A stretch of 64,000 nt of DNA from Prostheceraeus crozeri (taxonomy: Eukaryota > Platyhelminthes > Polycladida > Euryleptidae): assembly GCA_907163375.1 (NCBI GenBank), contig CAJQUW010005746.1, forward strand, positions 62,001 through 126,000, given 5' to 3'. The translations under genes were made by a program, and so were the position numbers. Positions 545-52,241 of this stretch are shown one piece after another; within the stretch, counting starts at the first letter, position 1; every line of letters starts with the position of its first letter. The notes below the pieces were generated by a model. It was not told the DNA's origin, did no database searches, and saw only the letters and a list, made by a program, of their open reading frames with translations.

Positions 545-871
545 ATAGACATTTCAGAAAGAAGAAATTCATAGATCGATGTTATATTGATATATACACT
601 GGCCACGCTGCCTCTTTTAGTGCGAACGGCAGAAAGAATGAACATTCACGGATATAACATTCACCAAGTGGAATTGAACATCATTTACATCTACATCTAA
701 GACCTAACATTTACCCGAAGTCAAGAATGACAATAAAATAAATTAGCAGTGCAAAGTTCAATGAAGTGATAAGAATTAAAAATCGATACACATCAAGACT
801 TTACAATCAATTTACAGTTATAGACAAATTCCTTTTGAATACAAAGAGAAGGTTGCATAGAAGAAATGGCA
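545..871. repeat. Left arm of 327-bp inverted repeat of PLE A
   Basis: This is the reverse complement of 2325-2651 with essentially no mismatch seen. It therefore contains an antisense copy of the last ~25 codons of the element's own protein. The first ~36 residues of the open frame starting at 766 are translated from this antisense segment and are not genuine PLE protein. Confidence 0.9.
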
Positions 872-3210: not shown

Positions 3211-3744
3211 GACTCATGTTTATCGGAATTTGAAGGATTCAGACGACAATGAATGTTCATAAAATTCAATTTAAAACAGCTTTCAAGTGTGAGAAGATCG
3301 ACAATAGCGTTTGACATAAAATACTATACATAGACATCAAACAATGGCATCGCACTTTGAAATAATTGATGGTTTTTAAACTGCCTGCATAGATATTTTA
3401 AACTGCCTTCATAGTTCTGAGACACTTGTATAAAATGGATTTACCCATTCTTAGCTTTAAGAAAAATGCAGGCACGTCGGAAGTACGGTAGCAGTAAATT
3501 TTTATTGGGATCGTGGAGTATGTTGCTTGTTGCGCTTGAGATACATAACCTAACACATAACACATTATCAACTTTCCGAAGACAAACATCTAGATGAGGC
3601 TTCAGAGTCAATCTCATCTCCGTCGATTGAGAAAAAGACACACAAATCTCTTGCGAAAAATATAGATTGCCGGATCAAAAATTCAAGTAAATAGACAATA
3701 CAAAGTAAAGTCATTTATTGAATTATTCATCTTTACTTTGTATT
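3211..3744. other. Intergenic stretch with a small hairpin
   Basis: No coding evidence. There is a 10-bp inverted repeat, CAAAGTAAAG/CTTTACTTTG, at about 3700-3742. A short near-duplicate, TTTTAAACTGCCT, occurs twice around 3374-3410. Confidence 0.5.
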
Positions 3745-4733
3745 TTCTATCGTAGTAGACTTTCACTCATATCTTAATGGACTGAATAACAAAATTAAAT
3801 TCACTATTGAAATTGGAAAAGAAAAGTTGAACTTTTTGGATGTCTTGATTTATCGAAATGGTCAACAAATTGAAACAGATATTTATTCAAAACCTACCGA
3901 CAGTCACGCATATGTATCGTTTCATTCATGCTATCCAAGACACGTAATACGGAATGTGCCCTATGCTTTGACTAATCGAATCAACAGGATCGTCACAAGT
4001 CAGACTGTGAAGGAGGTCAGATTGAAGGAAATGAAAAATCCGTTGAAAGAGTTGGATTATCCCGACAATTAATCAATGACGCAATTCAAAAATCAAAATC
4101 CCCGAATACATCACCTCTAAAATGTAACGACGAATCAAAAATAATATCGCATATCCAAACATACAATCCAAATAATCCTAGTTTTTACAGGAATGTGATA
4201 ACTCCTTCGTTTTCCAGTTTGAAGCTCACTGATACATTCAGGGATTACAAGACAAGAATGTCATATCGTCAGCCTCCATCTCTTTTACGAATTCTATCAA
4301 ACAATAATCGTACAATACTGAAAGGTGTAACAAAATGCGGAGATTCACGTTGTCAATGTTGTAATTCTATTATAACAGGAACAACTTTCAACTATAAACG
4401 CAACAACGAAGTGAAAACTTTCTGGAATAAACACAACATGAACTGTAACTCAAAGGACTTGATCTACGTGCTTCAATGTAGAGGTTGCCACGCCCTATAT
4501 GTTGGCCAGACGGGTGACACATTGAGATCCAGGACTCGAGTTCACAGGCAACAAGTGAAGGACAGAAACTATAGGGTGCTATTTGTAAGCAAGCACATCT
4601 CTTCATGCTCACAGAGTGATCCTCCCTTCAGCATAATCCCAATATTAAAGCTGCCCCTAACTGTGATCGAGCTTATATGGAGAATAAAGAAAAATGGTGT
4701 ATTAGTGTTATAAGACCTTCACTTAATCGTGAT
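3745..4733 (+). pseudogene. Penelope-like element B, decayed RT tail plus GIY-YIG
   Basis: Translation begins inside the RT palm. The 3753-4072 part includes NFLDVLIYRNG and YSKPTDSHAYV, typical of the region after YxDD. A frameshift near 4040-4060 moves the reading frame to the connector and the GIY-YIG domain (4195-4713). The latter contains CGDSRCQCC and DLIYVLQCRGCHALYVGQTGDTLRSR. A second frameshift near 4655-4675 restores the expected C-terminus ending PSLNRDQ at about 4733. It is 5'-truncated with at least two frameshifts. It is a different PLE lineage from element A, having the Cys-rich insert before GIY-YIG. Confidence 0.85.
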
Positions 4734-4863
4734 CAATGATTTTCACCTACAATTGACGATGTCTGTGGTATTTTCAATTTTATTTTCATCCATGACATTT
4801 ATGTACTTCACTTACTATGTATGTGTAGCCTATGTTATAATTATTTGAATTCATTATAAGTAT

Positions 4864-4908
4864 AGCCCTTGAAAAGCTTGGAGGTGACCAAGTGAAACCG
4901 GTCGGGCG
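4864..4908 (+). ncRNA. Degenerate hammerhead-like fold at the PLE B 3' end
   Basis: Stem I GCCC/GGGC, stem II CTTGG/CCAAG, GAAA, self-complementary ACCGGT as stem III and a C at position 17 are all present. The core that should read CTGANGA is CTTGAAAA, so it is probably inactive. Its place just after the coding end matches the hammerheads of other Penelope-like elements. Confidence 0.5.
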
Positions 4909-4960
4909 CTGAAAGAAATCAAAGCTTTTTTCTTGATGACCTGTGGGATTTAATTTATTC

Positions 4961-6385: not shown

Positions 6386-9055
6386 TCACAGACAGAAGTC
6401 AGAGTTATAAAGTCTCGTCATGCTTGAGATGAAACATCTGCTACGCTGTGCTGACTTTGATATTGGAAGACGAAGCTTTCCCGAGTAAGGTAATATGGAT
6501 GGAATCAGATGATATAATGGATGATCAATGTTCGCCATGATTTTCTGAAATAGCTTAAAACCAATAATTTTTCGCCTGTACTCGAGAGGAGTGAATTTGG
6601 CACATTCGCAATGATGAGCATTGCATATAATAAAGTGGGCTCGGTTTTGAATTTGCTCCAACTTATCGACCAACGTTCTCGGCAAGTCAACAAACAGAGG
6701 AGCTCCATATTCCAGTAGACCTCGTATACAGTTCTGATAAACAACAGTGAGTTCTGAAGGAGGAAGATAGTCACGCAATTGTCGGAGAATATACAACCTT
6801 GACGACGCTCTTTTGCAAATTTGCTGTATATGTAATTTCCATTTCATGTTACGATCTAAAAGGACACCCAGAATTCTCATATCCTCTTTCATTGGAATAT
6901 TGGCTACCGTAAACGGAGACGTAGATATAGATGCAACTCTCTGAACAATCATTTGTTGGCACTTCTCTTCTTTAACACTCATGCCGTTCTGATGAGTCCA
7001 TTTTATAATTTCATCATAGACTGAAGACAGGTTCGATGTTGAGTCCTTTTTTCGTATTACATCTGCAGCAATGATGTCATCGGCGTATTTCAGAAGTAAA
7101 GAGTCGTGAGAAGGCAAAAACAGATCCGCTATGAAGTAACCAAAAAGAATTGGACCAAATGATGATCCCTGCGGAATACCACTAGGAACGTCAGATGAAG
7201 AACTTGATATTCCTTTCCATTTCACTTTAAATTTTCGGTCTGTAATATAATTCTGAGTAAAAGTGATGGTAAAACCATTAAACTTATCATTTATCATTTT
7301 TGCAATCAAAAGGTCATGCGGTATTCGGTCAAAGCCTTTGAGAAGATCGATGGACATGATATGGCATGCGAGTACTTCGGGATCATCGAGGTGTGTTGTC
7401 AGATAATCTTCCAAGGCGATGAGAGCACAAACAGTGGAACTGCGTGGTCTGTAAGCAAACTGACTATTGTCAAATTTAGTGAGAAATTCATGTTTCATAC
7501 GCTTCAACAAACATTTTTCAAATAACCTGGCCGGCATTGGGAGCAAGGATATCGGTCTCAAAGAGTTTAAAGTTGGTGGAGTACTTTTTGGTAAAGGAGT
7601 CACATAGGCTGTTTTCCATTTCTTAGGTAAATCTGCATGTTGTAGGCAAGAATTGAAGATGATGGTGAGTGGCTCAGCAAGGTGAGTGGCAAACAAGGAC
7701 CAAACCTTAGATGGAATATCGTCTGAACCAGGGGATTTTTTCGGATTGACATGTTGTAATAAATCATTGAGTTCAGCCTCGTTTACTTGAAATGGAATAG
7801 TAAATGGATACGGACGAAATGTTGAGGAGGAAGCAGTCTGCGTAACAAAACTTGAATGTAGAGTTTTTCTAATGTCTTCAAGAATACATTCAACAGATTT
7901 GTCAGGATCACAGTTTGGTAACCAATTACTCATTGCATTCTGATCTCCTTTCACCCATTTGTATACATCCCATACCGATTTTCCTTCTGTCAACATACGA
8001 TTTCCCCAACCTTTTTTGGCTTCATAAATAGCAGTTTTCACTTTCTCCTTGTAATGATGGTACAGATGCCAATCTTTACTCCTGTATGCTTTATAACGTT
8101 TATTGATTAGGACCTTAACCACATTTGTCATCCACGGTGGGTCTTTTATTGACCGATTTACATAATCTATAGGCAACATGTTAAGACTGGCTTCGAGATA
8201 AAAATAAAAAAGATGACACATTTGATCAAGATCACAATTAAGGAGATTACAACTCCAATCAACGGAAGAAAGATATTTCAAAGCAGGTAACAAGTTCGAT
8301 TCACGGAAGTCATAGACTTTAACAAAATAATCATCAGAGACCAAGGTACATTTAGATTTCAGTAAGACAATGTTGTGGTCACTAGTACTCAAAGGAGGAA
8401 GAATAATGCATGACAAATAAAACTGTACATGTTCTTCAGGAATCAATATCAAGTCTAAGATAGCATCTTTGCGTGTTGGTTGTTGTACAAGATTTCGCAG
8501 ACAAAAACTTGATAGAAAAATGTCTGTTTTAAAATGATTAAAGTCTCCAAGAAGGACAACTTTGCATAGCGGAAAACTTTTTAAATGACAATCAACTGAA
8601 TTGATGATATGATTACAGACAGAATTAAACTGATTTAAGTTCAAAGAACTGCCGTGGGGAAAGTATAAATTGACAATGATGGCATGAAACTCTTTGTATT
8701 TAACACGAACAATCAGCATCTCAAATTCATCAGATTTAACAAAATATTCAAGAGTCTCTGATCTGAAAAAATTGCTTACGATACAACACAAACCACCTCC
8801 TTTCTTGGAGGTATCTCGATCAGCACGATGGGTCGTATAACCAGGAAAAGATACGAAATTTAAACCAAATGAATCGTCAAGCCATGTTTCTGTCAGACAT
8901 ACAATGTTAGGACGGTAATCACATAAAAAGAGCGAAAATTCGTCAACTTTATTAACAATAGACCTACAATTAATGGTACAATAGGAAGGAAGAAAAAAAT
9001 ATTTCTCAACTTCAACGTTAGCATTCTTAGGAGATTTAAGAAATTTGTAATTCAG
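6386..9055 (-). CDS. LINE 1 ORF2: AP endonuclease plus reverse transcriptase
   Basis: It nicks the target DNA and reverse-transcribes the LINE RNA at the nick. The open frame runs 889 codons from just after the ORF1 TGA. The endonuclease covers roughly residues 28-235 (NCRSIVNK, LTETWL, LLGDFNHF, TRKDAILDLIL, LSTSDHN). The RT follows, with SPGSDDIPSKV (~441), AYRPRSSTVCAL, SIDLLKGFD, GIPQGSSFGPILF and KYADD (~656-660), then thumb motifs (ILGVLLDRNMKW, LLEYGAPLF). There is no ATG before or within the start of the endonuclease; the first in-frame Met is ~112 codons in. So the protein must start at a non-AUG codon or arise from ORF1 by TGA readthrough. No frameshift was seen, so the copy may be recently active. 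Confidence 0.9.
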   Translation of the reverse strand: MNYKFLKSPKNANVEVEKYFFLPSYCTINCRSIVNKVDEFSLFLCDYRPNIVCLTETWLDDSFGLNFVSFPGYTTHRADRDTSKKGGGLCCIVSNFFRSETLEYFVKSDEFEMLIVRVKYKEFHAIIVNLYFPHGSSLNLNQFNSVCNHIINSVDCHLKSFPLCKVVLLGDFNHFKTDIFLSSFCLRNLVQQPTRKDAILDLILIPEEHVQFYLSCIILPPLSTSDHNIVLLKSKCTLVSDDYFVKVYDFRESNLLPALKYLSSVDWSCNLLNCDLDQMCHLFYFYLEASLNMLPIDYVNRSIKDPPWMTNVVKVLINKRYKAYRSKDWHLYHHYKEKVKTAIYEAKKGWGNRMLTEGKSVWDVYKWVKGDQNAMSNWLPNCDPDKSVECILEDIRKTLHSSFVTQTASSSTFRPYPFTIPFQVNEAELNDLLQHVNPKKSPGSDDIPSKVWSLFATHLAEPLTIIFNSCLQHADLPKKWKTAYVTPLPKSTPPTLNSLRPISLLPMPARLFEKCLLKRMKHEFLTKFDNSQFAYRPRSSTVCALIALEDYLTTHLDDPEVLACHIMSIDLLKGFDRIPHDLLIAKMINDKFNGFTITFTQNYITDRKFKVKWKGISSSSSDVPSGIPQGSSFGPILFGYFIADLFLPSHDSLLLKYADDIIAADVIRKKDSTSNLSSVYDEIIKWTHQNGMSVKEEKCQQMIVQRVASISTSPFTVANIPMKEDMRILGVLLDRNMKWKLHIQQICKRASSRLYILRQLRDYLPPSELTVVYQNCIRGLLEYGAPLFVDLPRTLVDKLEQIQNRAHFIICNAHHCECAKFTPLEYRRKIIGFKLFQKIMANIDHPLYHLIPSILPYSGKLRLPISKSAQRSRCFISSMTRLYNSDFCL

Positions 9056-11769: not shown

Positions 11770-12519
11770 GCATATATATAGACTAGATGACTTGAAATCA
11801 TTTTTGAAAAAGTAATGTTATCCAAATTCTTTAATCAATGATGGTATATCCAAGGCATTACAGCTTGATCGTTCAACCTTAATACATGATAATGATGTAA
11901 AAAGAAATAATGACAATTCCCTGATTCCTTTTGTATGCACGCATAATGCTCGAAATATAAATGTTCTTCCCATGATTAATCATTTTAACTCAATTTTGAA
12001 AAGTGATCCACAGACTAAAAGACAAATAATTTTTAACAGCAAACGGCAATCTAAAAATGTGAAACAAATCCTATGTAAATCGAAATTTTTAGAAAATGAT
12101 ATTAACATTTTTTCTGTCACTAGATGTAAAGACCAACGCTGTGGTACATGCCAATTTTTAATGGAAGGTAACTCTTATAACTTTAATGAAAACCATTTGT
12201 TATAAAAAGTTATATGACTTGTGCATCTTCTAATCTAATTTATGTTATAACTTGTCATGGCTGTAAAGAATACTACATAGGTGAAACAGGTACATCCTTA
12301 AGAGCTAGAGTTAGAGTCCACAAACAGCAATTGAATAATCCCATCTACAGACAAATAAAGCTGAGTGAACATCTTGAGAAATGTGGCAAGGGACATTTTA
12401 AGATTTTCCCATTTTGTAAGATTCAAATTGATAGTGACATAGAATGCAAATGTAAAGAAAGATATTTCATAGATCTATTCAAGACTAAGCTCAATAATTC
12501 ATCTATAAGAAATCTATGA
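11770..12519 (+). pseudogene. Penelope-like element C, connector plus GIY-YIG domain
   Basis: Recognisable coding starts near 11840 with FVCTHNARNINVLPMI, typical of the stretch between RT and endonuclease in PLEs. The CxxxRCGTCQF block is at ~12125-12160. A lost base near 12196-12206 creates a stop. The other frame (12214-12519) then gives the GIY-YIG domain with LIYVITCHGCKEYYIGETGTSLRARVR and a C-terminus KTKLNN. The RT is absent, so this is a 5'-truncated insertion. It is closer to PLE B than to PLE A because of the Cys motif. Confidence 0.85.
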
Positions 12520-12597
12520 AATGTTTTATATCTACAGCCTATTTTTTGTATTATGCACGTTATCATCTGTAACTTTCACTTTAAATGTATTTTTGAA

Positions 12598-12635
12598 TGC
12601 ACCTGAAGATTGATTGAAATGAAAGCGCTCGTGCA
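12598..12635 (+). ncRNA. Hammerhead-like motif in the 3' region of PLE C
   Basis: Stem I TGCAC/GTGCA pairs perfectly. The core is CTGAAGA (12603-12609; position 7 is free in the consensus), then GAAA (12621-12624), palindromic AGCGCT as stem III and C at the cleavage site (12630). Stem II (12610-12620) is A/T-only and weak and lacks the usual first G-C pair, so activity is doubtful. Confidence 0.55.
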
Positions 12636-12671
12636 TCAATTGTTTTTGATTTGACTATTTGGGTTCTAGTT

Positions 12672-12676
<5 letters not shown>

Positions 12677-12704
<28 letters not shown>
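12677..12704. repeat. (TA)n microsatellite at the PLE C 3' end
   Basis: A TA tract directly follows the PLE C tail, mirroring the arrangement after PLE B. Confidence 0.9.
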
Positions 12705-12707
<3 letters not shown>

Positions 12708-12846
12708 CCAAATAAACCCGGTTGAAAAATGAATCAAAGCATGTATATAAACATATAAAAATGTTTCGGTTTTTTACATTCTTCTTCGGAGAATTACGTT
12801 GACACTCCAAAGCTCTTTGAAAACAATTGCGTATATGTCTTATACG

Positions 12847-14087
12847 CAGGGCTAGGACCGGTTAATTTTTTTGTAACCGGTTAACCGATTATATTTTTAA
12901 CCGGTTAAAATCGGTTAATCGGTTAAAATCGGTTAGAGGAGGATTCCCGGTATTTATTTAGTTGTTAAGGTATATCAAAAACTACGGACCTTGCCACTTT
13001 GGGTTTTGACCTAATTCTTCCATTTGCAGTGCTGTGATTTCATTGCATGAATACAGAACTTCACGTTTAGATGATAGTTCAATTGATAATATTGTGGTTG
13101 CTGCCTACGACTATTCAAAAGTCTTCGATACTCTGAAGTTTAACCATATCATTAACAGTCTGGCTGATTTGGATAATCCACTGGATACGTCAACTGGATC
13201 ATCGATAACTTCAGGGATCGCTTGCAATTCATTGTATGAACGATGATTGTAGCTGTAAAGGACGGTTGTCATTCCTTCCAAAAAACGCATATTATTATTT
13301 CATTTTTATTACTCGCTATGTTTCAATCGTTAGCGTACTAGTTTTGGTTTCTACTATTTCTACTAGTATAATAGTCAGTGCTTCTGTATGAATCCTGCTT
13401 AATAAACCTATCTATCCTATTGTCCACTTGATAAGTAAGCTTACATCTCCAAATTTACGAATGTTATTTCCAAAGTGGTTGTTTCAATAGAAACCGATTT
13501 TGCAAGTGACACCTACGGCTACATGTAGGCCCTATATTCTTTGCCAACTCAATTCAAAGTGAGTTAGTTTTTATTGGCATATATAGCCTATGCGATGTCG
13601 TCTGTGTGTTATTATTGCTAATTTATCCTATTCACCACTTTTTAGGTTAAAACTACAAATGGTGTAAGACTTTCCGCAGTTAAATAGGTCACTCTATGCA
13701 TAGGCCCACTATAAGTATTAAATGGACTGATGTTACTTAGATTACATCAAATTGAAAATATAAATGTCAACATAATCTTATTGTACATCAACCTAATAAA
13801 ATTGTTGAAATATACTGACCATGTGTACGTAGCAGCACGACTAAAGGATTGCGAATTGTAATGAATGAGTTTGAATGGATTGTGGATGAGGATGAATGAG
13901 CAACCACTACTCCATGAAACCAGTGTAAAATCTTTAGTTCAATCGGATTTCATCATACACGTAGTGTAGTACACGTTAAATCTAATGAAACGTCGTAACC
14001 GATTTTAACCGGTTAAGAGAAAGTGTAACCGGTTAAGAGAGAGTGTAACCGGTTAACCGGTTAACCGGTTAACCGATCCTAGCCCTG
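12847..14087. mobile_element. ACCGGTTAA-rich DNA element, copy 1, with captured RT fragment
   Basis: The ends are inverted: CAGGGCTAGGACCGGTTAA at 12847 and its complement finishing at 14087, each followed inward by arrays of AACCGGTTAA words. The CAGGG start suggests the hAT superfamily. The flanks (ttatacg / ttataga) resemble each other but do not give a clean 8-bp duplication. A second copy lies inverted at 18630-19306 with the same internal order, so this is a dispersed family. Confidence 0.7.
12985..13240 (+). pseudogene. LINE reverse-transcriptase fragment inside the ACCGGTTAA element
   Basis: Translation gives FGF-PNSS-CSAVISLHEY followed by YDYSKVFDTLKFNHIINSL, matching RT blocks around the first catalytic Asp of CR1-like LINEs. 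It has an in-frame stop and no further RT motifs. The same fragment is found in copy 2 at 18986-19252, so it was captured before the element spread. Confidence 0.75.
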
Positions 14088-14367
14088 TTATAGACACTAA
14101 AAGAATAGCCATTATGAAAGAGTAATGGGTAGATTACACATCATTCGTCACAAATGCAAATATTTCAAATAGCTACTGAAAAATTATTCAAATGCAGAAA
14201 AGCATCAAGCCAGGCATGAAATTCCTACTATATTGATACAACAATCAATAAATGTTAGACGTCGTCAAATATCGTCGCCAACTATATTTGAATAGAAGCA
14301 TAATACTCAACTTGCCCTGCTACCCAACGTGCCCCACTCCCCGCTGTACATATACAGTGTAGGCCTA
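14088..14367. other. No gene recognised
   Basis: Flank between two DNA elements, with no coding support. Confidence 0.5.
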
Positions 14368-15120
14368 CATCCCTGTGGGAACGAATCTGGCGAAAAGCTG
14401 GCAGATATATCATGCAATAGTTCAGTAATATTTTTTAGCATATTCGCTGGCGAAGTTCGCCGGCGACAATTCGCGCTCTGTATGCCACCTTTTACTTTTG
14501 ACTTTCTCTCTTATTTTCTTTAGTAATCCGCCTCTACAGCCGAGGCTCTATTTTCTCCCTCGCCTCACCATCACCCACACATGGCTAATCTATCTAAGAA
14601 TTAAGTGAAGACTAATGGTAAGAATATAGAGAATCCGCATACATAAATTTTCATAACATATCTTGACATTCAATAATTTACAACAATGACAAATATTTGA
14701 ATAATATCATAGTATTTACTGCGACATTTATGGAAGATAAATACTTCTTTAGTTTAAGCCTTCGTGAATTAAAAAAGATCCCTTTTTATCAGATCAGACT
14801 GAGTATACAATATATTTTCATGTGAAGGTAATATACAAACATTACTACTTACCACTAATTAGTTGCTACAATATCCACGATTTCGCCGGTTGGCGAAAAA
14901 TCAGCTCGCATTAGTTAACAAATATCTACCAACTAATTATAGCAACTTTTTCGCCAACTGTCGTTTTTAAATTTTACACATGTTTTTGGATAGATGATGA
15001 CCATTTTCACATGCGGAGATAGTTTTTACACGAAAATGAACCTTTAAAAAAATTATCTACAAAATCGCTACCTCGCCAGATAATCTGCTGATATTAGCAA
15101 GATGCGTTCCCACAGGGATG
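14368..15120. mobile_element. MITE-like element with 16-bp perfect terminal inverted repeats
   Basis: CATCCCTGTGGGAACG at 14368-14383 is perfectly inverted at 15105-15120, and the arms stay related further in (clusters of CTGGCGA/TCGCCAG). It encodes nothing recognisable; the short frame 14329-14523 crosses the left end. No clean target duplication was found, so the superfamily is open. Confidence 0.6.
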
Positions 15121-26917: not shown

Positions 26918-27179
26918 TTAAAGACCCAGTCCGCCCAAATTTACCTAACGTTTTTTCACGCAATCATGTTAATTCCCTATGTGGTGAATCTGTCTACACG
27001 CTCTGACAAACGACTGTACCGTGGATCAGCTTGCAATCGCTGTTTCTTTCTCGAGTGATGACGTCACTAGTGGAATCACCCGCCGGCTGCCGTGAAAGTC
27101 TCTACAGCTCTGCATCAAAGTGAAATCTCTCTTCTCGTTTGTTAGCAAAGCTCCTTGATCATCATCCTAAGTGTGAAAC

Positions 27180-27287
27180 ATGCCTCAGTCCTGTACAGTT
27201 TTTGGGTGCAACACAAATAAGAAAATTCACCCAGATCTGAATTTCTTTTCAATACCCGAAAAACACTCTGACATCCGAAGACAGTGA
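27180..27287 (+). pseudogene. THAP zinc-finger domain, first exon
   Basis: From ATG 27180 the frame reads MPQSCTVFGCNTNKKI then LNFFSIPEKHSDIRRQ before TGA at 27285. This is the start of a THAP domain (C-x4-C, then the F-x-P block) used by Kolobok and P-element transposases for DNA binding. A strong splice donor, GTGAGT, begins at 27284 just before the stop, so this may be a proper first exon. I could not find the exon holding the second zinc ligand pair (C..H), so the gene may be incomplete. Confidence 0.6.
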
Positions 27288-27699
27288 GTGGATCTGAGTG
27301 ATCTCCAGAGAAAATTTCACAAAAAACTCGAACACAAAAAATTTGCGAAAAATTCACGAATAAATCAACATATAGCCGTGACAAAAGGCAATTTGCATTA
27401 GAATTCAAATAATCCAAGACAATAATCTAACATATGTACTGCAAATCCATGCATTGTATAATGTATTATAAAATATGGCCAGAAGCCAAAGAAGGACAGG
27501 CTATCAGCACGTTGAAAAGCATGCATTTATAGAAATAAACTAAATGTGATGAACAGTTTTCACGATCATATTCGTACTCAGCACCTCAAAATATCCTTTT
27601 CCCACTTATTTTTTTAATACATTAAAAACTTTAAATCGATTTTTTTGGGTAGTGTTATAAATTTATTTAATTGTTGTACAAAGGACGTAAATATGATAT

Positions 27700-28222
27700 T
27701 TACATCGCAGTATCAGAATCATGAAAAGAAAACCCCTTGTATTTCATTTCTGGGTCAGGATATGCCTTTCTGATAGCTATAACCACACATGATGGAATGA
27801 CTAGACGATTATGACGGCCCAAACTCCTGTTGTATATCCAATGCACAAAATTACAGTAGGCTGTATGTCGGTAAAGCTCTGGTGTTCGCTGATCTGCACC
27901 GGGTGCTTTTGCCAAAAAAGTAGTGCGCATAGCGGTGGACATGTCTAGCACTCCCTGATTCAAGCAAGTAGATTGAAAATCAGAGTTATAAGTGATACAT
28001 CCATTATAGCGTTTTTGAAGGCATAGATAGCTTCACAGTTCGGACATAAACACCATGACGATAATGTCAATAACCGCCGCTCGTCTAGACAAATCACTTG
28101 AGGATGCATGTCCTCTTCAGTCTCTTCAGTTGGATGAGCGACACCTGCTTCAGAATACGCGCCTTTTGTTTTCCTTGACACTTTACTGGGCTCAAACGCA
28201 TACCCAGTTATTTCTTTATCTG
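27700..28222 (-). CDS. P2X7 C-terminal (ballast)-like domain protein, terminal exon
   Basis: The exon is inferred to start after a pyrimidine-rich acceptor ending ATTACAG (just above 28222). It encodes DKEITGYAFEPSKVSRKTKG, an acidic linker, SSWCLCPNCEAI, then (after a frame change near 28000) CITYNSDFQSTCLNQGVL and ELYRHTAYCNFVHW...LVIPSCVVIAIRKAYPDPEMKYKGF, ending at 27700. The paired Cys motifs and the AYR-PSC-IRK-YP--YKGF block match the intracellular zinc/GDP-binding domain of P2X7 receptors. No channel domain is present. Being inside TTAA-flanked inverted repeats, it is a transposon passenger or accessory gene and not a host receptor. Confidence 0.7.
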
Positions 28223-28903
28223 TAATAAAATGACAACAATTATTCATAGATTTATTAATGAGAATGAGATCAGGCTTTCAAGTGAGTATTTTTTTCATTT
28301 TCATTTATTTATGTCCTTATTTTGTAAAAGTGTTATTCATATTCATGTTCATGCGTAATCTAATATCTGAATAGAATCTAATAATCTAATATATTATCTG
28401 AACATCTAATATGTGAAATATCGTGAAATTATATCATCTGGTATCAATAAATGCGATAAACATTTATCATCTTCATCGCGTTCATTAGTTCATTTCGCCT
28501 TATACATTCAGTTCATCGCTAATTCGTAGTTCTGACAAATTCGCAAATGATGATGTACTAATGCAAAATATGAAAATTTGGGCATTGTCCTGACTCTGTA
28601 TTATAAATCTACCGCACCAAAATGAAACAGGATCACTTTCTTTAGAAACTGCCAGTATCGATTGCTTGGCGATTCCGCTTGCTGTTTCAGCGTCAGCAGG
28701 GGGCGAGTCCGCTACTGATATCAATAGGCTGTACTGTTGTCTGCTCCTTTGACTTCCCCGAATGACGTCACGAAAATACTTTCATCGGCTCCGTGTGTGT
28801 TAATGCATCTCGATACGAACGAATGAATATGTACACAGTTCCTTAAACATCATGAGCTATCTAAACAGGGTAACATGAAAAATTGGGCGGACTGGGTCTT
28901 TAA

Positions 28904-36538: not shown

Positions 36539-38531
36539 AACGCTATCTTAGCGCTATGATAGCGTTATCCGACAAACTAAGTATTTCAGAACGCGCTATT
36601 CTTTATCATAAAGCGCCAATCTATGCGCTATTTATTGAAGTTCTGAGAAACGCTACTTAACACAATAGGAAATTGGTTATTGTCTGTAATTGTAAATGAA
36701 AGCTACCTTATTTTATGCACCTTTTTGGCGGAATGTTTTTGCATGTTTACTACTTGTCAAGTTACAAGAGTTCCAACATCAGTTTTTTTTGTTTTCTAAT
36801 ATGTAGCCTACTGTCACAATTTCAGATTTGTACAAAACAATTAATTCCAGATCTAATTTATTAATTTAGAAAGACACATTTATACTGAAATCAAAATCAA
36901 TTTGATCAATGGATGTATGAAAGCAATTACATAATTTAGTCTTTGGTTTAGGCGGGTCTAGAAGGCTGCTAAGCATCACTTCTTGCTCCGGTCCTTTTCT
37001 TTTGTATGCTTCAACAGCATTGCTTCGATGCCCAGTTCTTGATTTTATTAACCGCTCGCCTACATTTTCTCGGAATAGCCTTGTCGCACATGTTACTTTG
37101 CCAGAATGTGCCGTGATGTGTCCTTTGATATCGGCTATGGATGCGGCCTCCGGCAACAATTTTCTGATGGAATTGACTCCAACGGGAGAAGTGGCGAATC
37201 TGGGCTGGTCTGGGATAATGTTTCGTAGTGGTCGACGGTAAAATGCTCCCGTAAAAACACCCATGCTTCGAAGCCGGCTCACGTAAAGTTTCAATATCTT
37301 ATATACCGATCGATTGTTATCGCTATCGTATTGTCGAACACACTTGTTTTGTATCTTGCGATCGCGGATTCCACCGGAAAAGACTTTGTTGCTGCGACCC
37401 GTGTACTCAACAAATTTCCCATGGTCGTCTTCTGAAAACGTGAATTGCTCCAGTTGCATCTGGCGATGCTCGTCGCACGCTCTGAGCCCGAAAACTTTAC
37501 AGTTGTAGAAGTAAACGGCCCGCAATAGTCCATTTCCATCATGTAAGGAAAATGCATTGGTATCCCATAGTTTCGCCTCACTATCCTCTGATATCGGATC
37601 AGCTCTCTTGTGATGGGATCCGATGCCCCGAGAAGTGAGATTTCTCATGCAGGCATCTAAAGCACGGACAAATTGCACAAAATTGAAATCCTCCTTATCC
37701 ATTATATTGCAGTCGGGTCTTCTCGGATAAATCGGGCCAATCCGCAAACAATATTGTAAATAGTATTGGGAGGATACTCGGTTTCATCCTGCCGTCGGAT
37801 CTCGAATATAAAATGTTTCAAGGCTCTTGAAATGTCAGCCTTTGGAGCCGTCCACAAATCTGTTAGTTGGGGAACCAAGTAATCATTTTCTTGTGTTGTG
37901 GAAGATTGTTGGTTTCTCCAAGTGGCCCGATCTTCATATAACTTTGTGCACCAGGAACTATTTCTAACGGTGTTCTTCGACCGTGAACATGAAACAACGC
38001 GATCAATGTCCTGAGACGACGCAATGGAAAATCGACTAGCGTCAAAGCTGTGGTCTGCCATTGTGATCAGATGTGCTTAGGGTAAAATTCAGAAATCCTA
38101 TTTATATATTAGTGATGAGAATTATTAACAAGTCAATCTTTTAAGAATAGATTTCATATCAAATACAATCAGCAACTGCTTTATCAAGAGAAGACACTTA
38201 TGAAAGAGTAACAATACAACGCTATGAATTTGTATGGGCATTCATTCTGTCTATTCCCTTATTCCAACGCAACTAGGTGTGAAAGTCTTGACTGGCAACA
38301 GAATCTATTGTGTTCGCTGTTGTACAAAGAGATTATCAGCTATGTTATAAAGAAACGCTATCTTAGCGTTTCTGGATAACAGAACAAGTTGAAATTACGG
38401 TTACATTCACAATGTGCAATTACGAGCCATAGCAATCTTGGGTCAGATAATCAACAGATCAATCTATGCAGGCGGGCAGTTTTATTCTACTATAGCGCTA
38501 GAAAACGCTATCTTAGCGCTGTCATAGCGTT
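36539..38531 (-). mobile_element. Crypton A with palindromic flanking sites
   Basis: A tyrosine-recombinase gene lies between direct copies of a palindromic 28-mer built from AACGCTATC...GATAGCGTT, at 36539-36566 and 38504-38531 (26 of 28 identical). A partial copy is at 38354-38380. Cryptons move by a tyrosine recombinase and do not have DDE-type inverted termini, so repeated palindromes would suit recombinase binding sites. The exact ends are an inference. Confidence 0.55.
36866..38061 (-). pseudogene. Crypton A tyrosine recombinase (DUF3504-type), one frameshift
   Basis: It starts at ATG (minus strand, 38061). The N-terminal core-binding part has LKHFIFEIRRQDETEYPPNT (~37810). One frameshift near 37705 separates it from the catalytic part ending at 36866. 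The latter shows FGLRACDEHRQ (catalytic Arg I), AFYRRPL, the box HSGK in place of the canonical HxxR (Arg replaced by Lys), and GHRSNAVEAY with the Tyr nucleophile. The overall length of ~395 residues fits Crypton integrases related to the ZMYM/QRICH1 DUF3504 domain. The Arg-to-Lys change and the frameshift suggest loss of function. Confidence 0.8.
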
Positions 38532-42787: not shown

Positions 42788-44321
42788 CAGTCCATTTCAT
42801 AAAAAGTGGATCATCCTAAAATTTGACTAAATAAAACATAAGTATGATACAGAAAGCATTTTTCATGTTATTTCATGTCCCTAATATATTTAAATGTCCT
42901 TATATAATCTGATAAGCTATGATACAGTAACGGTTCTTAAGAAGCTAATATTTTGTGGCCCTACCCTTATTGTCAATGACATTACCAATTCGTCTAGGCA
43001 TTGATTCGATGATATCGTTGATTTTTGACTGATCTAACTTTCTCCACTCTCTTTTTAACAGTGACGTAAGTTGTGATGCGCCATCTGTAGGTAGCAGTGA
43101 ACGACGAACGTTACGTTTTAGAATACTCCATACATTTTCTATGGGATTCAGATCAGGAGAACGAGCTGGCCAAGATAATGTCCTAAGTCCTAATTGAGAC
43201 TTGCATAAGTTGACTCTACTACTCCTGTGACACGTAGCATTATCATCCATAAATAACCAAGTCGATGGATCACCAAGTTGATCTGTCATTTGGCCAATGT
43301 TCATTAGTAAAACATTCACATAGCGTTCAGAATTCATGGTTCCTTGGTGTATGTGAAGTTCAGAGCGGCCATTGGTCCAAATGCCAGCCCAAATCAGTAG
43401 AGTCGCACCACCTTGTACCCGGGGACGATGTAAATGTCTCGGAATTTCCTGATCAGATTTTATCCATAATCTCAATCGACCATCACTATCCTTCAGACGG
43501 ACTGATGCCTCATCAGACCAGACAACCCGATCCCATTGATTTCGCCAGTGACAATGACTCATTGCCCATCTGAGACGTCTTTTTGTATGCTGATCTGATA
43601 ATTCGATCTGAGAGGGCCTCTTACAGCTCTTGAAATTCGACTCAATAAGTCTTCTACGAATAGTGGACTTAGAAATAGACGAGTCTAGTGCAGCCATCTC
43701 AGTTAACGAGAGACTTGGATCAACTTCAACAAATCTCAAAATTAGGCGGTCTCTACGTTTGGATGTTCTAGCAAGGCTGACACTTTGCCTTTTGTGAATG
43801 CGATCTCGTTATTGTTCATTTGTGCTTTGTATTGTTTTCAACCGGTAAGAGATAGATTTCTAGCTGAAAGCAATCAGAAGTGCTGCCAACACCACCGCAA
43901 CGAAGTCAGGAAGCTATGGAACATGAAGTCCAGTTAATCACATGTAGCAGTTACATTATTGTTGATGAATCATGGTGCTACACTGGCTCTGATTGACCGA
44001 TTTTCTTTATTTTTGTTTTGCTTGATAGCTTTTGGCTTGTAGAACAACATATTACATAACAAAGGAAACAAATGTAATTTTATAAGAGTGAGGTATGATT
44101 TTGTGTAACATTGCTAAATGAAGATCAAATTATCTACTACTTTTTTATCTATAACAGGAAGACAACTCAATATTCATGCTTGAAATTTCCAACAATGATA
44201 TTAGTAAGCACAACTGACATATCTTCCAAATTTCAGAGAAATTCGTTCAAGTTTGGCGGAGTTAGACAAAGTTGAAGTTAAGGCGATGTTTAAGGGTGAT
44301 CCATTTTTTATGAAACAATCT
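42788..44321 (-). mobile_element. Tc1-like transposon
   Basis: The left terminus CAGTCCATTTCATAAAAAGT follows a TA. The right end near 44321 is its diverged inverse (GGGTGATCCATTTTTTATGAAAC...CTG), without a clear TA after it. The transposase is on the minus strand inside. Confidence 0.75.
42945..43739 (-). pseudogene. Tc1-like DD34E transposase, N-terminally damaged
   Basis: It is a cut-and-paste transposase with an RNase-H-like fold. Catalytic residues are present: Asp in VVWSDEASV, Asp in FMDDNATCH and Glu in NPIENVW, with 34 residues between the last two by my count. The C-terminus (IIESMPRRIGNVIDNKG) is typical. The frame opens at a TTG. Coding similarity continues upstream to about 43810 (QSVSLARTSKRRDR), but the first helix-turn-helix cannot be read, so it is probably not functional although the catalytic domain is open. 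Confidence 0.85.
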
Positions 44322-44423
44322 GGTTCATGTGTGTAACACATGTTCCTTAATACTAATACACAATATTCTTTATTTGCGAAATTACATGCGCACATTGGTT
44401 TTAAACTAACAAGTTAAGTGTGA

Positions 44424-45625
44424 CTATGAGAAATGGGTACAGGGCAGATAAGAGTATTCAATAGATGTTGAAGTCAAGCACAACAGTTTATGCAAGCATC
44501 GCATGAAAAGGGTTCTTATGTTATTTGTTGTACAAGATTTAATCTGGTAATTGTGATGGCGCTTCCGAAGATTATGTCCGCATTCTTTTAAGTCTGGGAG
44601 GAATTCGTGAAGAACGTGGTTCTTGTCTCTCATGATCTTTTTAAATAATATCCTGATCTTAAATATCCTGTTTCTCAATCGTTTTCAAAATATTTGCATC
44701 AGGTTTGTAGAAACCAAGTAGAATGCTGCGCTTCACAAATTTCGTGATACGGGTCTTATCAGCTTCTGAGGTGAATCCCCACAAGCCCTGAACCGCATAG
44801 AGCAGTCTATTTATAACAAGGGCGTCATAAACTTGGTATGCATCTTTTTTGCTGGCACCTCGACTTCGCATGATGTTCATAGCATAAAGACTACAATTAC
44901 ATTTTTTGGACATGCGCACTTGTACTCAGTTTATCAGTATGACTCCAAGAATCTTGATTTTATTAGTACGATTTATATTTGGAATCAGGGCAGCATTCCC
45001 CTTTGATCTGGGTCTTCTGAAGATGATTTCTTTAGATTTTGATACATTCAATTTCAGATTGCATGTATCTGCCTAGGATCTGATGCTTTCAAGTTCTAAT
45101 ATTGCACTTTTTGAGTTATATGGTTGTAGTAGAATGTACGCATTATCAGTGTATTCGATTATCAAATTTTCTTTTGTGATTGGTTTAAGGTCAGAAGTGG
45201 CAACAGTAAACGCAAATGGACCTAGGACTGAACCTGGGAATACTCCGGCATTTATTGTTATATCAATTGACATTTCATCTTGTGAGTGTTTTATGATGAC
45301 GTTCAGTAACAAAATCGACCATCCAATTAAAGACTTCAGTAGACAGATTTAAGCGACTTAGTTGTTCAAGAAGGTTGACGTGACGTATAGCATCGAATGC
45401 CTTACTAAAATCAAGGGATAAAACCTGTATGTAATTGTTATACTCAAGAGCAGTCGTAATTTCTTGTGTTAGAGCAACAAGTGCAGCAGTTGTACTACCC
45501 TTTGGTCGAAATGCGTATTGGTTATCAAATTGCTCATTGTTCTCAAGAGCCTTATAAAGGAATTTCTTAGCAAACCGTGATGGCATGCCATCAGGACCAA
45601 CAGAAGTATTTTTGAGTTTAATCAA
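44424..45625 (-). pseudogene. LINE fragment: reverse transcriptase and C-terminus
   Basis: Minus-strand order: TSVGPDGMPSRF, FRPKGSTTAALVALTQ and SLDFSKAFDAIRHVNL (45625-45275), then PGSVLGPFAF and IEYTDNAY in place of YADD (45312-45073), then NRLLYAVQGLWGFTS (44919-44659), then GHNLRKRHHNYQI near the end. Frameshifts separate the blocks and the catalytic YADD is lost. It belongs to a different LINE family from the two long LINEs here, judging by the C-terminal LRKRHHNY motif. Confidence 0.8.
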
Positions 45626-46509
45626 TGCGTGATGAATTCAATGATTCAATGATTGAATGATTTTAAGTGAATGCATATAAGATAACGAATCAGACACGAG
45701 GCGAAGGAGCATTTTCTGAGTTTTCCTTTGATATCTTTGATATATGGCTCATCGAAGTCGGTAGACTAAGACAGAAATGGTGATGTCGCAAGGTTATCAC
45801 ACTATATCGTGACTGTATTGGCTGAACAAGTCATTCTCATATTTTCATCAAAAATATTGGTGCTTGACATCATCGGAATCCTTGTGATGTAAGGACTGAA
45901 GGCGTGTTCACAATAACTGTAAATTGAAATGAAGTCGCTCAGTATGTGTAAAACAGTTGTTGTTCACATTAGCCTGATTTTCCCATCGTTGAATAGTTTC
46001 AATGTGACAGTGGAGCTCAATGATAGAATAAAATATTGTCACGATTCAATCGTTGCCGTTGCCGTACTAGTGTGAACGCACCTTTGAAATTTGCAAGTTC
46101 TATTCAAAAGAGTTCAATAGCTATTTTTCAAACTTTTTTCAATATTTTTCTTCTTATCGCTAAAGTAAAATTATCATAGATTATTTTAAGACTGACAATG
46201 TAGGCTCTCGAATGGTGCATGGTGCGTAGATAGGAAGGCATGAGAATCGATTGAATTTCGACATAATTTAGGTGGTCAGTCTTTTATAAAGGAAAGCTTA
46301 TCATGCGGCGCGGACCTAGGATTGATCATGGCACCAGCCCTAGGACTCTTCACATAATCAGAGAAAGCATAGAGAATCTCATTTCCGCCGAGAACTTCAG
46401 ACTGCTTCACATTGGATCTATATGTTCTTCTACTTGATCGTGTCTAAAATGAGAAGGAGTCTGGCAGAGGTCGGCAGATAAGCAGGTACGTAGTAGTCGT
46501 CGTAGGACA
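45626..46509. other. No gene recognised
   Basis: Non-coding stretch between LINE fragments. A short run of GATTCAATGATT-type repeats lies near 45630-45655. Confidence 0.5.
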
Positions 46510-48459: not shown

Positions 48460-49422
48460 TCAAGTTATTGTCACATTTGAGCAGTTATTGAAAACAGGAG
48501 CAAAAGTCACCGTTCCTTGAAACTCCTGAGCACTTTCGCAGGTCTTGGTCGTTTCGTATACTACCGCATCCATATTTTCAAACATCGGGGCTTCCTTACT
48601 TGACGTTGGAATCAATGAACTTTCACCTTGATCGCTTGGCTTCGCATTGCAGTACAGAATTTCTGTCATTCTTTCATTATAGTGTTCGGCAGTGAAATAG
48701 CATTTGTCAGCCTTTTCAGAGATGCGACCTGTCGTCGTTTGGGCAACTTCCTTTGAAACCCCGGCGTTGATCAGTCTCTGCTTTGCGGATCGGCGGAGGC
48801 TGGTATTTGAATAAAAGATTTCTTTTGAGTTTTCATTGTTTGAAAATGCACTCAAGTCTTCATTGTTTAGTGTTTTCATAAGTTCACGTGTGACTTTCTC
48901 TATGGCGTGAATTCCAAACGGACTTTGCTTGTACCATTTATTTCCTTTAGGGTTCTGCATAGGAGTCAAGTAAAAAGCATTGAGACCTTGTATGTTTTTA
49001 CGATATGAAACATATAATTTGTACATGGCGATTATGCATCTGTCTGGATTTTCTTTGTTTGGGTAAATGACTGTGGTCTTTGGCTCCATTCGACTGCAAT
49101 TCAAGCCAAACTTGCTGTTTTTAGATGTTCTCTCTACATACCGCAAAGTTTCTTGTCCGTTCATGATTTCCAAGAACAACTGGGAGTTATCACCGTATTC
49201 GAGATCCTTATGTTCTTGACCGGTGCGTAAGGAAAGATGGACGCCCAGATGATATATGAGTGCATATAATAACTGTCTTGGGTTAGAATAACCAAATGAT
49301 CCGTTCCGCCACAGCATTTCTTCGTGTCGTGCCGTGATCGTTGTTATATTTGCATATGCGATAAACGATTGCACACTTAAGTGAACCTGTTTAGTAAATA
49401 ACATTTTTAGTGTTTGACACAT
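48460..49422 (-). pseudogene. Crypton B tyrosine recombinase, N-terminally truncated
   Basis: The ATG is at 49422, but the first ~12 codons lie in the arm of a fold-back repeat, so the real N-terminal domain is lost. The catalytic region shows LSLRTGQEHKDL (Arg I), IYPNKENPDRC and MYKLYVSYR, WYKQSPFGIHAIE, then NTSLRRSAKQRL where the family normally has a His before SLR. GRIS replaces GHIS, and a Tyr follows in KCYF. The C-terminus FNNCSN matches Crypton C. Loss of the second His makes activity unlikely, although 320 codons are open. Confidence 0.8.
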
Positions 49423-49825
49423 AAGCCTTATATCAATGACGCTTTTCTACATCAACATGCCATAGTTTTATCAATGATCATTTTAGTCCAGTTCATCGGA
49501 ATCTTTTAATCTGTTTCTCGGTAATAGGTCTATGGTTGAAATACGTGAGACAACTACATCACAAAATGCAGCCAGAATGAATTTAGATTCTTATTATAAC
49601 TTTCGATTGTCGTATCCAACACTGCAAAATCATTCTAGCTGCATTTTAAGATGTAGTTGTCTATCACGTATATTTGATCGATATTACCGAGAAAAAGATT
49701 AAAAGATTCCAATAAACTGGACTTAAATGATTATTGATAAAATATGTTGATGCAGAAAAACGTCAAAATGATAAATGGCCTATGTGTCAAACACTCAAAA
49801 AATTATATTTAGTAAACAAACAAGC
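49386..49825. repeat. Fold-back element, ~190-bp inverted arms
   Basis: Arms ~49386-49575 and ~49625-49825 are about 80% complementary, with a ~50-bp centre. The left arm overlaps the 5' end of the Crypton B frame, so that coding start is derived from the repeat or the repeat from the Crypton. Confidence 0.75.
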
Positions 49826-50941: not shown

Positions 50942-52241
50942 ATGAATGATTCATTTCTAGAAGAATATTTTGACGAATTCGATTCTCTTATGATGGACTT
51001 TTTCAATGATGACTGTACACAACAAGCTACTTCTGCATCAACCTCTAGATTTGCTACAACATCATCAGAAGAAATACAAGAACATTTGAAAAGAAGAGTA
51101 CCTGAGGGAACCAAGAAGAAAGAAAAGTCATGTGTAAAGCTGTTCAAATCATGGCATGGTGAATGGAAAATAAGACTGGATGGGTGCAAGTTGTTCCATG
51201 AGCTGGAAGAGATGAGCGATAGCGATTTGAATTACTGCTTAAAGTTTTTTTGGCAGATGTGCGTAAACAGGACGGAACGAAATACCCGCCAAAATCGTTA
51301 AAGTCTATATTTGCAATGATACAACATTATTTACAATACGAATGCGGCAGAGATTGGTCATTGTTCAAATCTACAGAGTTCAAAGAGGCACGCGATGTCC
51401 TTGACGCAGAAATGAGAGTCAGCGCAGAAGAAGGAAATGTTGCACCCCAAAACGCGCAGAACAAATATCTGAGGATGATGAAAAGGAATTATGGCAGAAG
51501 GGTATTCTAGGATCTGGTACACCAACTCAACTCCAAGAAAGTCTGATTTACTGTCTCGGAATTCAATTGGGATTACGTGCAGCAGCAGAACATAAGCAGT
51601 TGAATTTTGGAAACAACAGTCAACTGAAGCTAATAACAGAAAATGGAGAGAAGGTTCTTCGATACACAGAACATGTATCAAAATGCAAAAACTTTGGTCT
51701 GAAGCAATCGACATTGGATCCAAAATCTGTAAGAATATTCCCTAACAAAGAAAACCCCAGTCGCTGCGTGATAAACCTTTATGAACTGTACATTTCGCAT
51801 AGACCGACTGAATGTAAATTGCCTGATTTCTACCTAGCGAGGATCAATAATCCGACTTCATCAGTGTGGTACAAAGCTCAACCTTTGGGAATTCATCAGA
51901 TTGAAGGTGTTACCAAGCGATTCATGTCTAGCATTGGCAAAACAGGATATTACACGAATACAAGCTTACGCCGCTCAGCTAAGACAAGGTTGGTGAAGGC
52001 AGGGATACCGAAAGAGGTGGTAAGGAAACGCATGGGCCATATATCAGACGCCGATGAGGTCTATATTCATGAGCAGCTGATGGAAAGAGAAATGGGAAGC
52101 ATACTCTCTGGTTCAAACCCACAGCCTGTGTCCTCTGTTGTCCCGTCTACATCTTTTTTGTCAGAGTCAGAGCAAGAAGCTACCAAGTCAAACAAAACAA
52201 TCATATTTAATAACTGTTCATTTAACAATTGTACATTTTAA
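50942..52241 (+). pseudogene. Crypton C tyrosine recombinase, two frameshifts
   Basis: It starts at ATG 50942 with an acidic N-terminus. The core-binding domain follows, and a T-run (7 T at 51245-51251) marks frameshift 1, after which the frame reads RKQDGTKYPPKSLKSIFAMI. Frameshift 2 lies near 51465. From 51567 the catalytic domain is open: LGLRAAAEHKQL (Arg I), FPNKENPSRCVINLYELYIS, WYKAQPLGIHQIE, NTSLRRSAKTRL (Arg II, with Thr where His is expected) and MGHISDADEVYI (His and Tyr nucleophile). It ends FNNCSFNNCTF. It is related to Crypton B but retains more catalytic residues. Confidence 0.85.

What the first reader, a model, noticed from the sequence alone, without database searches (positions are those of the whole stretch)
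26918..28903. TTAA transposon carrying a P2X7 C-terminal-like domain and a THAP exon
Perfect terminal repeats with TTAA on both sides enclose a plus-strand THAP start and a minus-strand gene whose Cys motifs and PSC-IRK-YP block match the intracellular domain of P2X7 receptors. A receptor 'ballast' domain as cargo or accessory factor of a Kolobok-like element suggests where that vertebrate domain may have come from, or a transposition role for it.
Basis: partly seen in the sequence, partly recalled or inferred. Interest (0 to 1): 0.8.

Follow-up and report, generated by a model that had tools for sequence, protein, structure and literature searches.

The report
Broken jumping gene with P2X7-like domain
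This is a crippled copy of a Kolobok DNA transposon, a kind of mobile element already reported to carry the protein domain from which part of the vertebrate P2X7 receptor is thought to derive; longer relatives in the same genome show that domain's gene lying on the opposite strand beside or inside the transposase gene.

Summary
Window 26918-28903 is a TTAA-flanked element with matching inverted ends (25 of 26 bases), a minus-strand match to Pfam P2RX7_C (55 bits, cut-off 23.5) and a plus-strand THAP start. The end pattern recurs 219 times in the genome (reversed-pattern control 10). A longer relative, L057, encodes a THAP transposase and an open P2X7-like gene, so this is a Kolobok element of Kol0 type and the P2X7-like protein is its KolX. 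Kojima & Bao 2022 (PMC9587614) already reported KolX as the P2X7 ballast domain and likely source of P2X7. Corrections: the 'THAP exon' is a fossil (stop in 23 of 23 short-copy rows), and KolX here has lost 40 bases. Not described in the passages I read: in 71 of 71 transposase hits with KolX within 8 kb the strands are opposite; three families appear to have KolX nested in the intron after GDGR, and one copy read in full has it tail-to-tail. KolX in short copies evolves close to neutrally. Verdict: real; new member of a known kind.

The parts
26918..26921 (.). left TTAA target-site duplication
   Evidence: 16 of 20 other fetched copies have TTAA on both sides
26922..26942 (+). left terminal inverted repeat, begins AG
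   Evidence: 219 genome hits for TTAA + end pattern, control 10
27180..27348 (+). remnant of the THAP start of the transposase gene; in-frame stop after 35 codons, next to a 4-base insertion; rest of gene deleted
   Evidence: element 1-431 aligns to L057 60-531
27348..27353 (.). deletion junction 1: about 1.3 kb of the full-size element missing (rest of THAP exon, exon with GDGR, part of the intron)
   Evidence: L057 531 to 1852
27700..28277 (-). KolX (P2X7 ballast-like) coding remnant, frameshifted; 40 bases missing near 28010-28030, removing the E-C-V-C-C block
28339..28413 (.). deletion junction 2: about 1.5 kb missing (sequence upstream of the KolX frame and the later transposase exons), short repeat-rich filler
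   Evidence: L057 2888 to 4436
28413..28878 (+). right subterminal region, homologous to L057 from 4436; holds one ~175-base unit that is duplicated in longer copies
28879..28899 (-). right terminal inverted repeat, ends CT
28900..28903 (.). right TTAA target-site duplication

Best explanation
The feature is a non-autonomous, internally deleted copy of a Kol0-type Kolobok DNA transposon. Shown: the ends, TTAA, colinearity with a longer element (L057) whose four transposase frames (THAP first) and antisense KolX frame are all open, and the P2X7 ballast signature of KolX. Inferred from family knowledge: transposase of longer copies cuts and pastes the short ones in trans at TTAA. Inferred without a test: KolX is a zinc-containing, possibly guanine-nucleotide-binding accessory or regulator of transposition, made from the opposite strand. 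In short copies KolX behaves as a passenger; from the window copy neither protein can be made intact.
For: Ends and TTAA. Colinearity with L057 by two deletions. THAP 63.3 bits, Mutator-like transposase 27.4 bits (cut-off 26.5), KolX 71.2 bits in L057. KolX profile against P2X7 chains E 7e-17, no other PDB sequence at 0.01; the 14 Foldseek hits with E below 0.01, of 43 listed, are all P2X7. Seven cysteines (C75, C77, C80, C91, C92, C106, C176) invariant in the 10 KolX aligned; in the 16 five are invariant and C92 is at 90% or more. 71 of 150 transposase hits have KolX within 8 kb, all 71 on the opposite strand. Short-copy KolX shows no codon-position bias.
Against: Of the full-size copies looked at, only L057 has KolX open: L058 and L059 carry frameshifting indels and the frame of L035 (C11424) starts late; the THAP exon frame of L058 is also cut short, 129 against 168 codons. 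Intron borders are read from consensus sites; no transcripts were available. The catalytic D-D-E residues were read from motifs, not aligned to references. The AlphaFold2 model of KolX is weak (mean pLDDT 54). Placement in Kol0 rests on KolX and THAP, not on a transposase tree. The 71 rows are copies (one copy counted twice), not independent families. Function of KolX is inference.
Confidence: 0.92

Rival explanations
1. The short copies are a piggyBac-type TTAA family that picked up the domain; a few piggyBac families are reported to encode KolX-like proteins.
For: TTAA target site is shared with piggyBac, and such piggyBac families are mentioned in PMC9587614 (passages).
Against: A longer copy with the same ends encodes a THAP transposase with GDGR, HDSMGHNA and DPWHMAK blocks and a Mutator-like match, and the ends are 5'-AG/CT-3'. 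KolX keeps seven cysteines, which the paper says the piggyBac version mostly lacks.
Confidence: 0.02
2. The P2X7-like ORF is a host gene (ZCD / nanor-like, or a P2X7-type receptor exon) captured as cargo by this transposon.
For: Host ZCD genes are reported in molluscs and other animals (PMC7016195, passages). 33 of 150 domain hits here were linked by contig to neither a transposase hit, nor window-family DNA, nor its ends; at least 9 of those 33 nevertheless read as members of transposon families by protein.
Against: KolX lies antisense near the transposase in 71 transposase rows (70 KolX) of diverged families, which a recent capture by one family would not give. The four contigs with P2X receptor hits (C3332, C8300, C11391, C4722) hold none of the 150 scored domain hits.
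Confidence: 0.05
3. KolX is kept by selection in the short copies because it helps their own mobility in cis.
For: KolX is still open in 11 of 24 short-copy rows although the THAP start is dead in 23 of 23. Within-group dN/dS is about 0.75, not 1.
Against: Among 22 short-copy rows variants fall evenly on codon positions 1/2/3 (38/35/36). Fixed differences between full-size and short copies do show a third-position excess, 4/2/10, but number only 16.
Confidence: 0.05

Closest known systems
Kol0 (Kolobok0) lineage of Kolobok transposons with KolX, e.g. Kolobok-1_XT (Kojima & Bao 2022, PMC9587614)
   Same: TTAA target, 5'-RR/YY-3' ends, DDD/E transposase, second protein KolX similar to P2X7 476-595 with seven cysteines around two zinc ions.
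   Different: The passages I read do not describe KolX inside the transposase intron or antisense to it ('antisense' and 'opposite' 0 occurrences), nor THAP (0 occurrences). Kolobok-1_XT itself could not be compared here.
Xenopus Kolobok transposases (PMC6004289, passages)
   Same: THAP domain plus DDE plus H2CH motif is described as usual for Kolobok transposases; L057 and L087 have THAP.
   Different: No KolX or P2X7 link in the passages seen ('P2X' 0 occurrences).
P2X7 receptor cytoplasmic ballast domain (PF20478; PDB 6u9v, 9e3m)
   Same: Sequence and fold match; seven cysteines; by the printed alignment L057 KolX has the equivalents of R546, H547, Y550 and R578.
   Different: No channel domain is attached; the gene belongs to a transposon.
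KolobokP with His-Me finger nuclease (PMC9587614)
   Same: Second protein on the complementary strand; tandem multimers occur.
   Different: No long terminal direct repeats seen between L057 and L058; accessory protein is KolX; the tandem array on C3634 includes a 0.6-kb spacer and truncated left ends.
Nanor / ZCD host proteins (PMC7016195)
   Same: Ballast domain at the C-terminus with conserved zinc cysteines.
   Different: Described as host genes ('transpos' 0 occurrences). That paper says H547 is not found in invertebrates; here its equivalent H150 is nearly invariant in the 10 KolX.

Membership tests
Kolobok superfamily | TTAA target-site duplication | tested here: met
   window both sides; 16 of 20 other fetched copies both sides
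Kolobok superfamily | ends 5'-RR ... YY-3' | tested here: met
   AG...CT inside TTAA; rule from PMC9587614
Kolobok superfamily | DDD/E transposase, with THAP domain usual | tested here: met
   L057, a longer copy with the same ends: THAP 63.3 bits, Mutator-like transposase 27.4 bits against cut-off 26.5; last exon no Pfam hit. L058 is similar but its first exon frame is cut short. Absent from the window copy by deletion
Kolobok superfamily | transposase clusters with reference Kolobok transposases in a tree | not tested
   Repbase references not held
Kol0 lineage | encodes KolX with P2X7 ballast similarity | tested here: met
   PF20478 71.2 bits in L057, 55 bits in window; PDB profile hits only P2X7
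P2X7 ballast (ZCD) domain | seven zinc-binding cysteines | tested here: met
   seven cysteines invariant in 10 KolX, five invariant in 16; that these are the zinc ligands is inferred from the alignment. Not met in the window copy, where C-V-C-C is deleted
P2X7 receptor | channel domain fused to ballast | tested here: not met
   13 P2X_receptor hits and 150 scored ballast hits share no contig
piggyBac | piggyBac transposase | tested here: not met
   no piggyBac model among Pfam hits of five L057 frames at E up to 1
KolobokP | long terminal direct repeats of about 450 or 660 bases | tested here: not met
   L058 against L057 shows only ~166-base subterminal units and the short ends besides the main match

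The most novel reading that the evidence does not exclude
KolX is the guanine-nucleotide cofactor subunit of Kolobok transposition. P-element transposase, also a THAP protein, has a GTP-binding domain built into its catalytic fold (PMC7776569), whereas Kol0 Kolobok would supply a GTP/GDP-binding zinc protein in trans. Its nested antisense gene, inside the intron that splits the first catalytic motif, would make transposase and cofactor compete for transcription, a built-in brake. P2X7 would then have inherited a transposition cofactor's nucleotide sensor.
Probability: 0.1. Interest if true: 0.75.

Novelty: new member of a known kind. Interest (0 to 1): 0.35.

Why it matters
It gives further genome-wide support for the published claim that the P2X7 ballast domain is a transposon protein, and adds a setting for its unknown function: a zinc (perhaps guanine-nucleotide) protein encoded antisense to a THAP transposase, in two arrangements within one genome. 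That would make the function of the ballast domain testable in a transposition assay rather than only in a channel.

Tried and rejected
THAP as a spliced first exon of a chimeric gene: rejected, because L057 has the THAP domain in one open exon and the donor-like site in the window is a 4-base insertion.

KolX as a selected cis factor in short copies: not supported, though within-group dN/dS is 0.75 rather than 1.

The second copy on the same contig (C4781:28259-30247) as an independent insertion: rejected. Its flanks are the reverse complement of the window flanks, 98.2% over 4.86 kb, so it is one insertion in an inverted duplication. L009 and L027 also share flanks, and L003 and L004 are units of one array. 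L003 and L027 were dropped before the dN/dS counts (22 rows kept), but are among the 24 rows and the 23 (there L003 alone stands for the array).

Structure of KolX: only a weak model (pLDDT 54); the fold search still put only P2X7 chains below E 0.01. I lean on sequence instead.

Eight other window frames scanned with Pfam are ordinary mobile-element genes.

Full report
Observation. The window is contig C4781:62001-126000 of a 2.05-Gb genome. At 26918-28903 a 1,978-base element lies between two TTAA. Its ends match over 25 of 26 bases counted with TTAA and one flanking base. The end pattern occurs 219 times in the genome with up to two mismatches, against 10 for the reversed pattern. The element's DNA has 83 matching pieces, with 40 of 205 candidates scored. 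Of 20 other copies fetched, 16 have TTAA on both sides, at 15 distinct sites.

What the genes are. The minus-strand frame 27700-28032 matches Pfam P2RX7_C at 55 bits (cut-off 23.5); the THAP start scores only 15.3 bits alone. A longer copy settles it. L057 (C6432, about 4.86 kb between its ends) shares the ends and has open transposase frames on one strand: 364-867 (THAP 63.3 bits), 883-1431 (holding GDGR), 3219-3611 (Mutator-like 27.4 bits, cut-off 26.5) and 3615-4235 (no Pfam hit). The P2X7-like frame lies on the other strand at 2209-2826 (71.2 bits). Consensus donors and acceptors would join the pieces (read by eye; no transcript seen). L058 (C2088) has the same layout at 96.7% identity, but its THAP exon frame is cut short and its KolX is frameshifted. 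KolX is frameshifted in L059 too. So of the full-size copies looked at, only L057 has both open.

The window copy. Compared with L057 it keeps 60-531, 1852-2888 and 4436-4930 and lacks the rest. The THAP start is dead: 23 of 23 short-copy rows carry an in-frame stop at codon 36 and/or 38, and the window's donor-like GTGAGT is a 4-base insertion. Its KolX lost 2+20+18 bases in the E-C-V-C-C block. Neither protein can be made intact from this copy.

Known kind. Kojima & Bao 2022 (PMC9587614; abstract, sections 3 and 10, and passages seen) state that Kol0-type Kolobok transposons encode KolX, that KolX matches P2X7 476-595 with seven conserved cysteines around two zinc ions, and that P2X7 arose by fusion of a P2X4-like gene with KolX. 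Rump et al. 2020 (PMC7016195; passages) had found the domain across animals; 'transpos' does not occur in that text. In the library held, a search for KolX with Kolobok found only that one paper. THAP as a usual part of Kolobok transposases is stated in PMC6004289 (passages).

Membership of the protein. Seven cysteines are invariant in the 10 KolX aligned, chosen from open frames and covering about four families. In the 16 five are invariant and C92 is at 90% or more. A KolX profile finds only P2X7 in the PDB (four distinct sequences, E 7e-17 and weaker). The AlphaFold2 model is weak (pLDDT 54), yet its 14 Foldseek hits with E below 0.01, of 43 listed, are all P2X7. By the printed alignment, equivalents of R546, H547, Y550 and R578 are present in L057 KolX.

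Architecture. The searches scored 150 of 262 KolX candidates and 150 of 387 transposase candidates, so counts are lower bounds. 71 of 150 transposase rows have a KolX within 8 kb, involving 70 KolX; in all 71 the strands are opposite, 53 with KolX upstream of the C-terminal exon and 18 downstream. Six of the 71 gaps exceed 2 kb, and C1539 is counted twice. By my arithmetic about 0.2 such pairs would be expected by chance; these are copies, not independent families. Of 20 KolX loci scanned (L029-L048), 9 show GDGR on the other strand beyond KolX, 8 of them with the DPWH-AK block on the opposite side; 5 show only DPWH-AK and 6 neither, four of which are short copies. In three families (L057 type, L029 group, L044; 41-46% transposase identity between families) GDGR is followed by a donor-like site in the same codon; the acceptor was located only in the L057 type. 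In L087 (C3233) the transposase is one uninterrupted 777-codon frame with THAP (55.6 bits), and KolX lies tail-to-tail behind it. I did not see these arrangements described in the passages read; Repbase entries could not be checked. The 13 P2X receptor hits lie on contigs C3332, C8300, C11391 and C4722, none of which holds a scored KolX hit, so no P2X-ballast fusion was seen. Sorted by contig, 70 of 150 KolX hits have a transposase near, 36 share a contig with window-family DNA, 11 with the same ends (C7737 is far from the end, C9669 3.4 kb away) and 33 are unassigned. At least 9 of those 33 (C10545, C7844, C2721, C10630, C2457, C11725, C12536, C6710, C10087) read as members of transposon families by protein.

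Selection. Among 22 short-copy rows (L003 and L027 dropped as duplicates) KolX variants fall 38/35/36 on codon positions 1/2/3, mean dN 0.030 and dS 0.040. L057 against each short copy gives dN/dS 0.20 to 0.42. Fixed differences between the three full-size rows and the short copies fall 4/2/10, nine synonymous and seven not; this is a small sample. The simplest reading is constraint in the full-size lineage and near-neutral drift in the short copies, although 11 of 24 short-copy rows are still open.

Mechanism. Shown: ends, TTAA, deletion origin, antisense KolX, lack of codon-position bias in short copies. Inferred: trans-mobilisation by transposase of longer copies, and KolX as an accessory or regulator. 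The bold reading is that KolX brings a guanine-nucleotide step in trans, by analogy with the GTP domain inside P-element transposase (PMC7776569, passages) and the GTP/GDP site of the ballast domain (PMC9859053, passages). Nothing here tests nucleotide binding.

Verdict. Real, correctly read in outline, and a new member of a published kind; the nested antisense arrangement is the part worth a follow-up.

Noticed in passing
window 26918-28903 with flanks, and 44348-46500, against C4781:26759-31747 and 12037-14740: The contig holds an inverted duplication: the element with its flanks recurs reversed at 98.2% over 4.86 kb, and a second stretch at 94-98%. Either a palindrome or two haplotypes joined head to head in assembly.
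   Followed up: partly
G000:C3634:150224-180796 (L003-L008): Tandem array of ten near-complete and two partial units of about 2.65 kb, each a copy of the element lacking the left TTAA and the next 3-4 bases, plus about 0.6 kb of spacer; two neighbouring units compared are 99.4% alike. A transposon turning into a satellite.
   Followed up: partly
L057:4243-4418 and 4436 onwards; window 28436-28611: A subterminal unit of about 175 bases is directly repeated at the right end of longer copies, perhaps transposase-binding repeats; the window copy has one.
   Followed up: no
window 36869-37783 (-), 48463-49446 (-), 51405-52238 (+): Three frames match DUF3504, two of them also the phage-integrase family below its cut-off: tyrosine-recombinase-like mobile-element genes.
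   Followed up: partly
window 742-2400 (+), 6389-9055 (-), 54120-55418 (-); 42948-43808 (-), 61979-62863 (+): Reverse transcriptases of retroelements and two Tc1/mariner-type transposases; the window is dense in ordinary transposable elements.
   Followed up: partly
unassigned P2RX7_C hits in G000, e.g. C8929:152808, C1211:693370: Some 24 ballast-domain hits were linked here neither to a transposase hit nor, by protein reading, to a transposon family; they may include host ZCD/Nanor-like genes or further transposon families.
   Followed up: no
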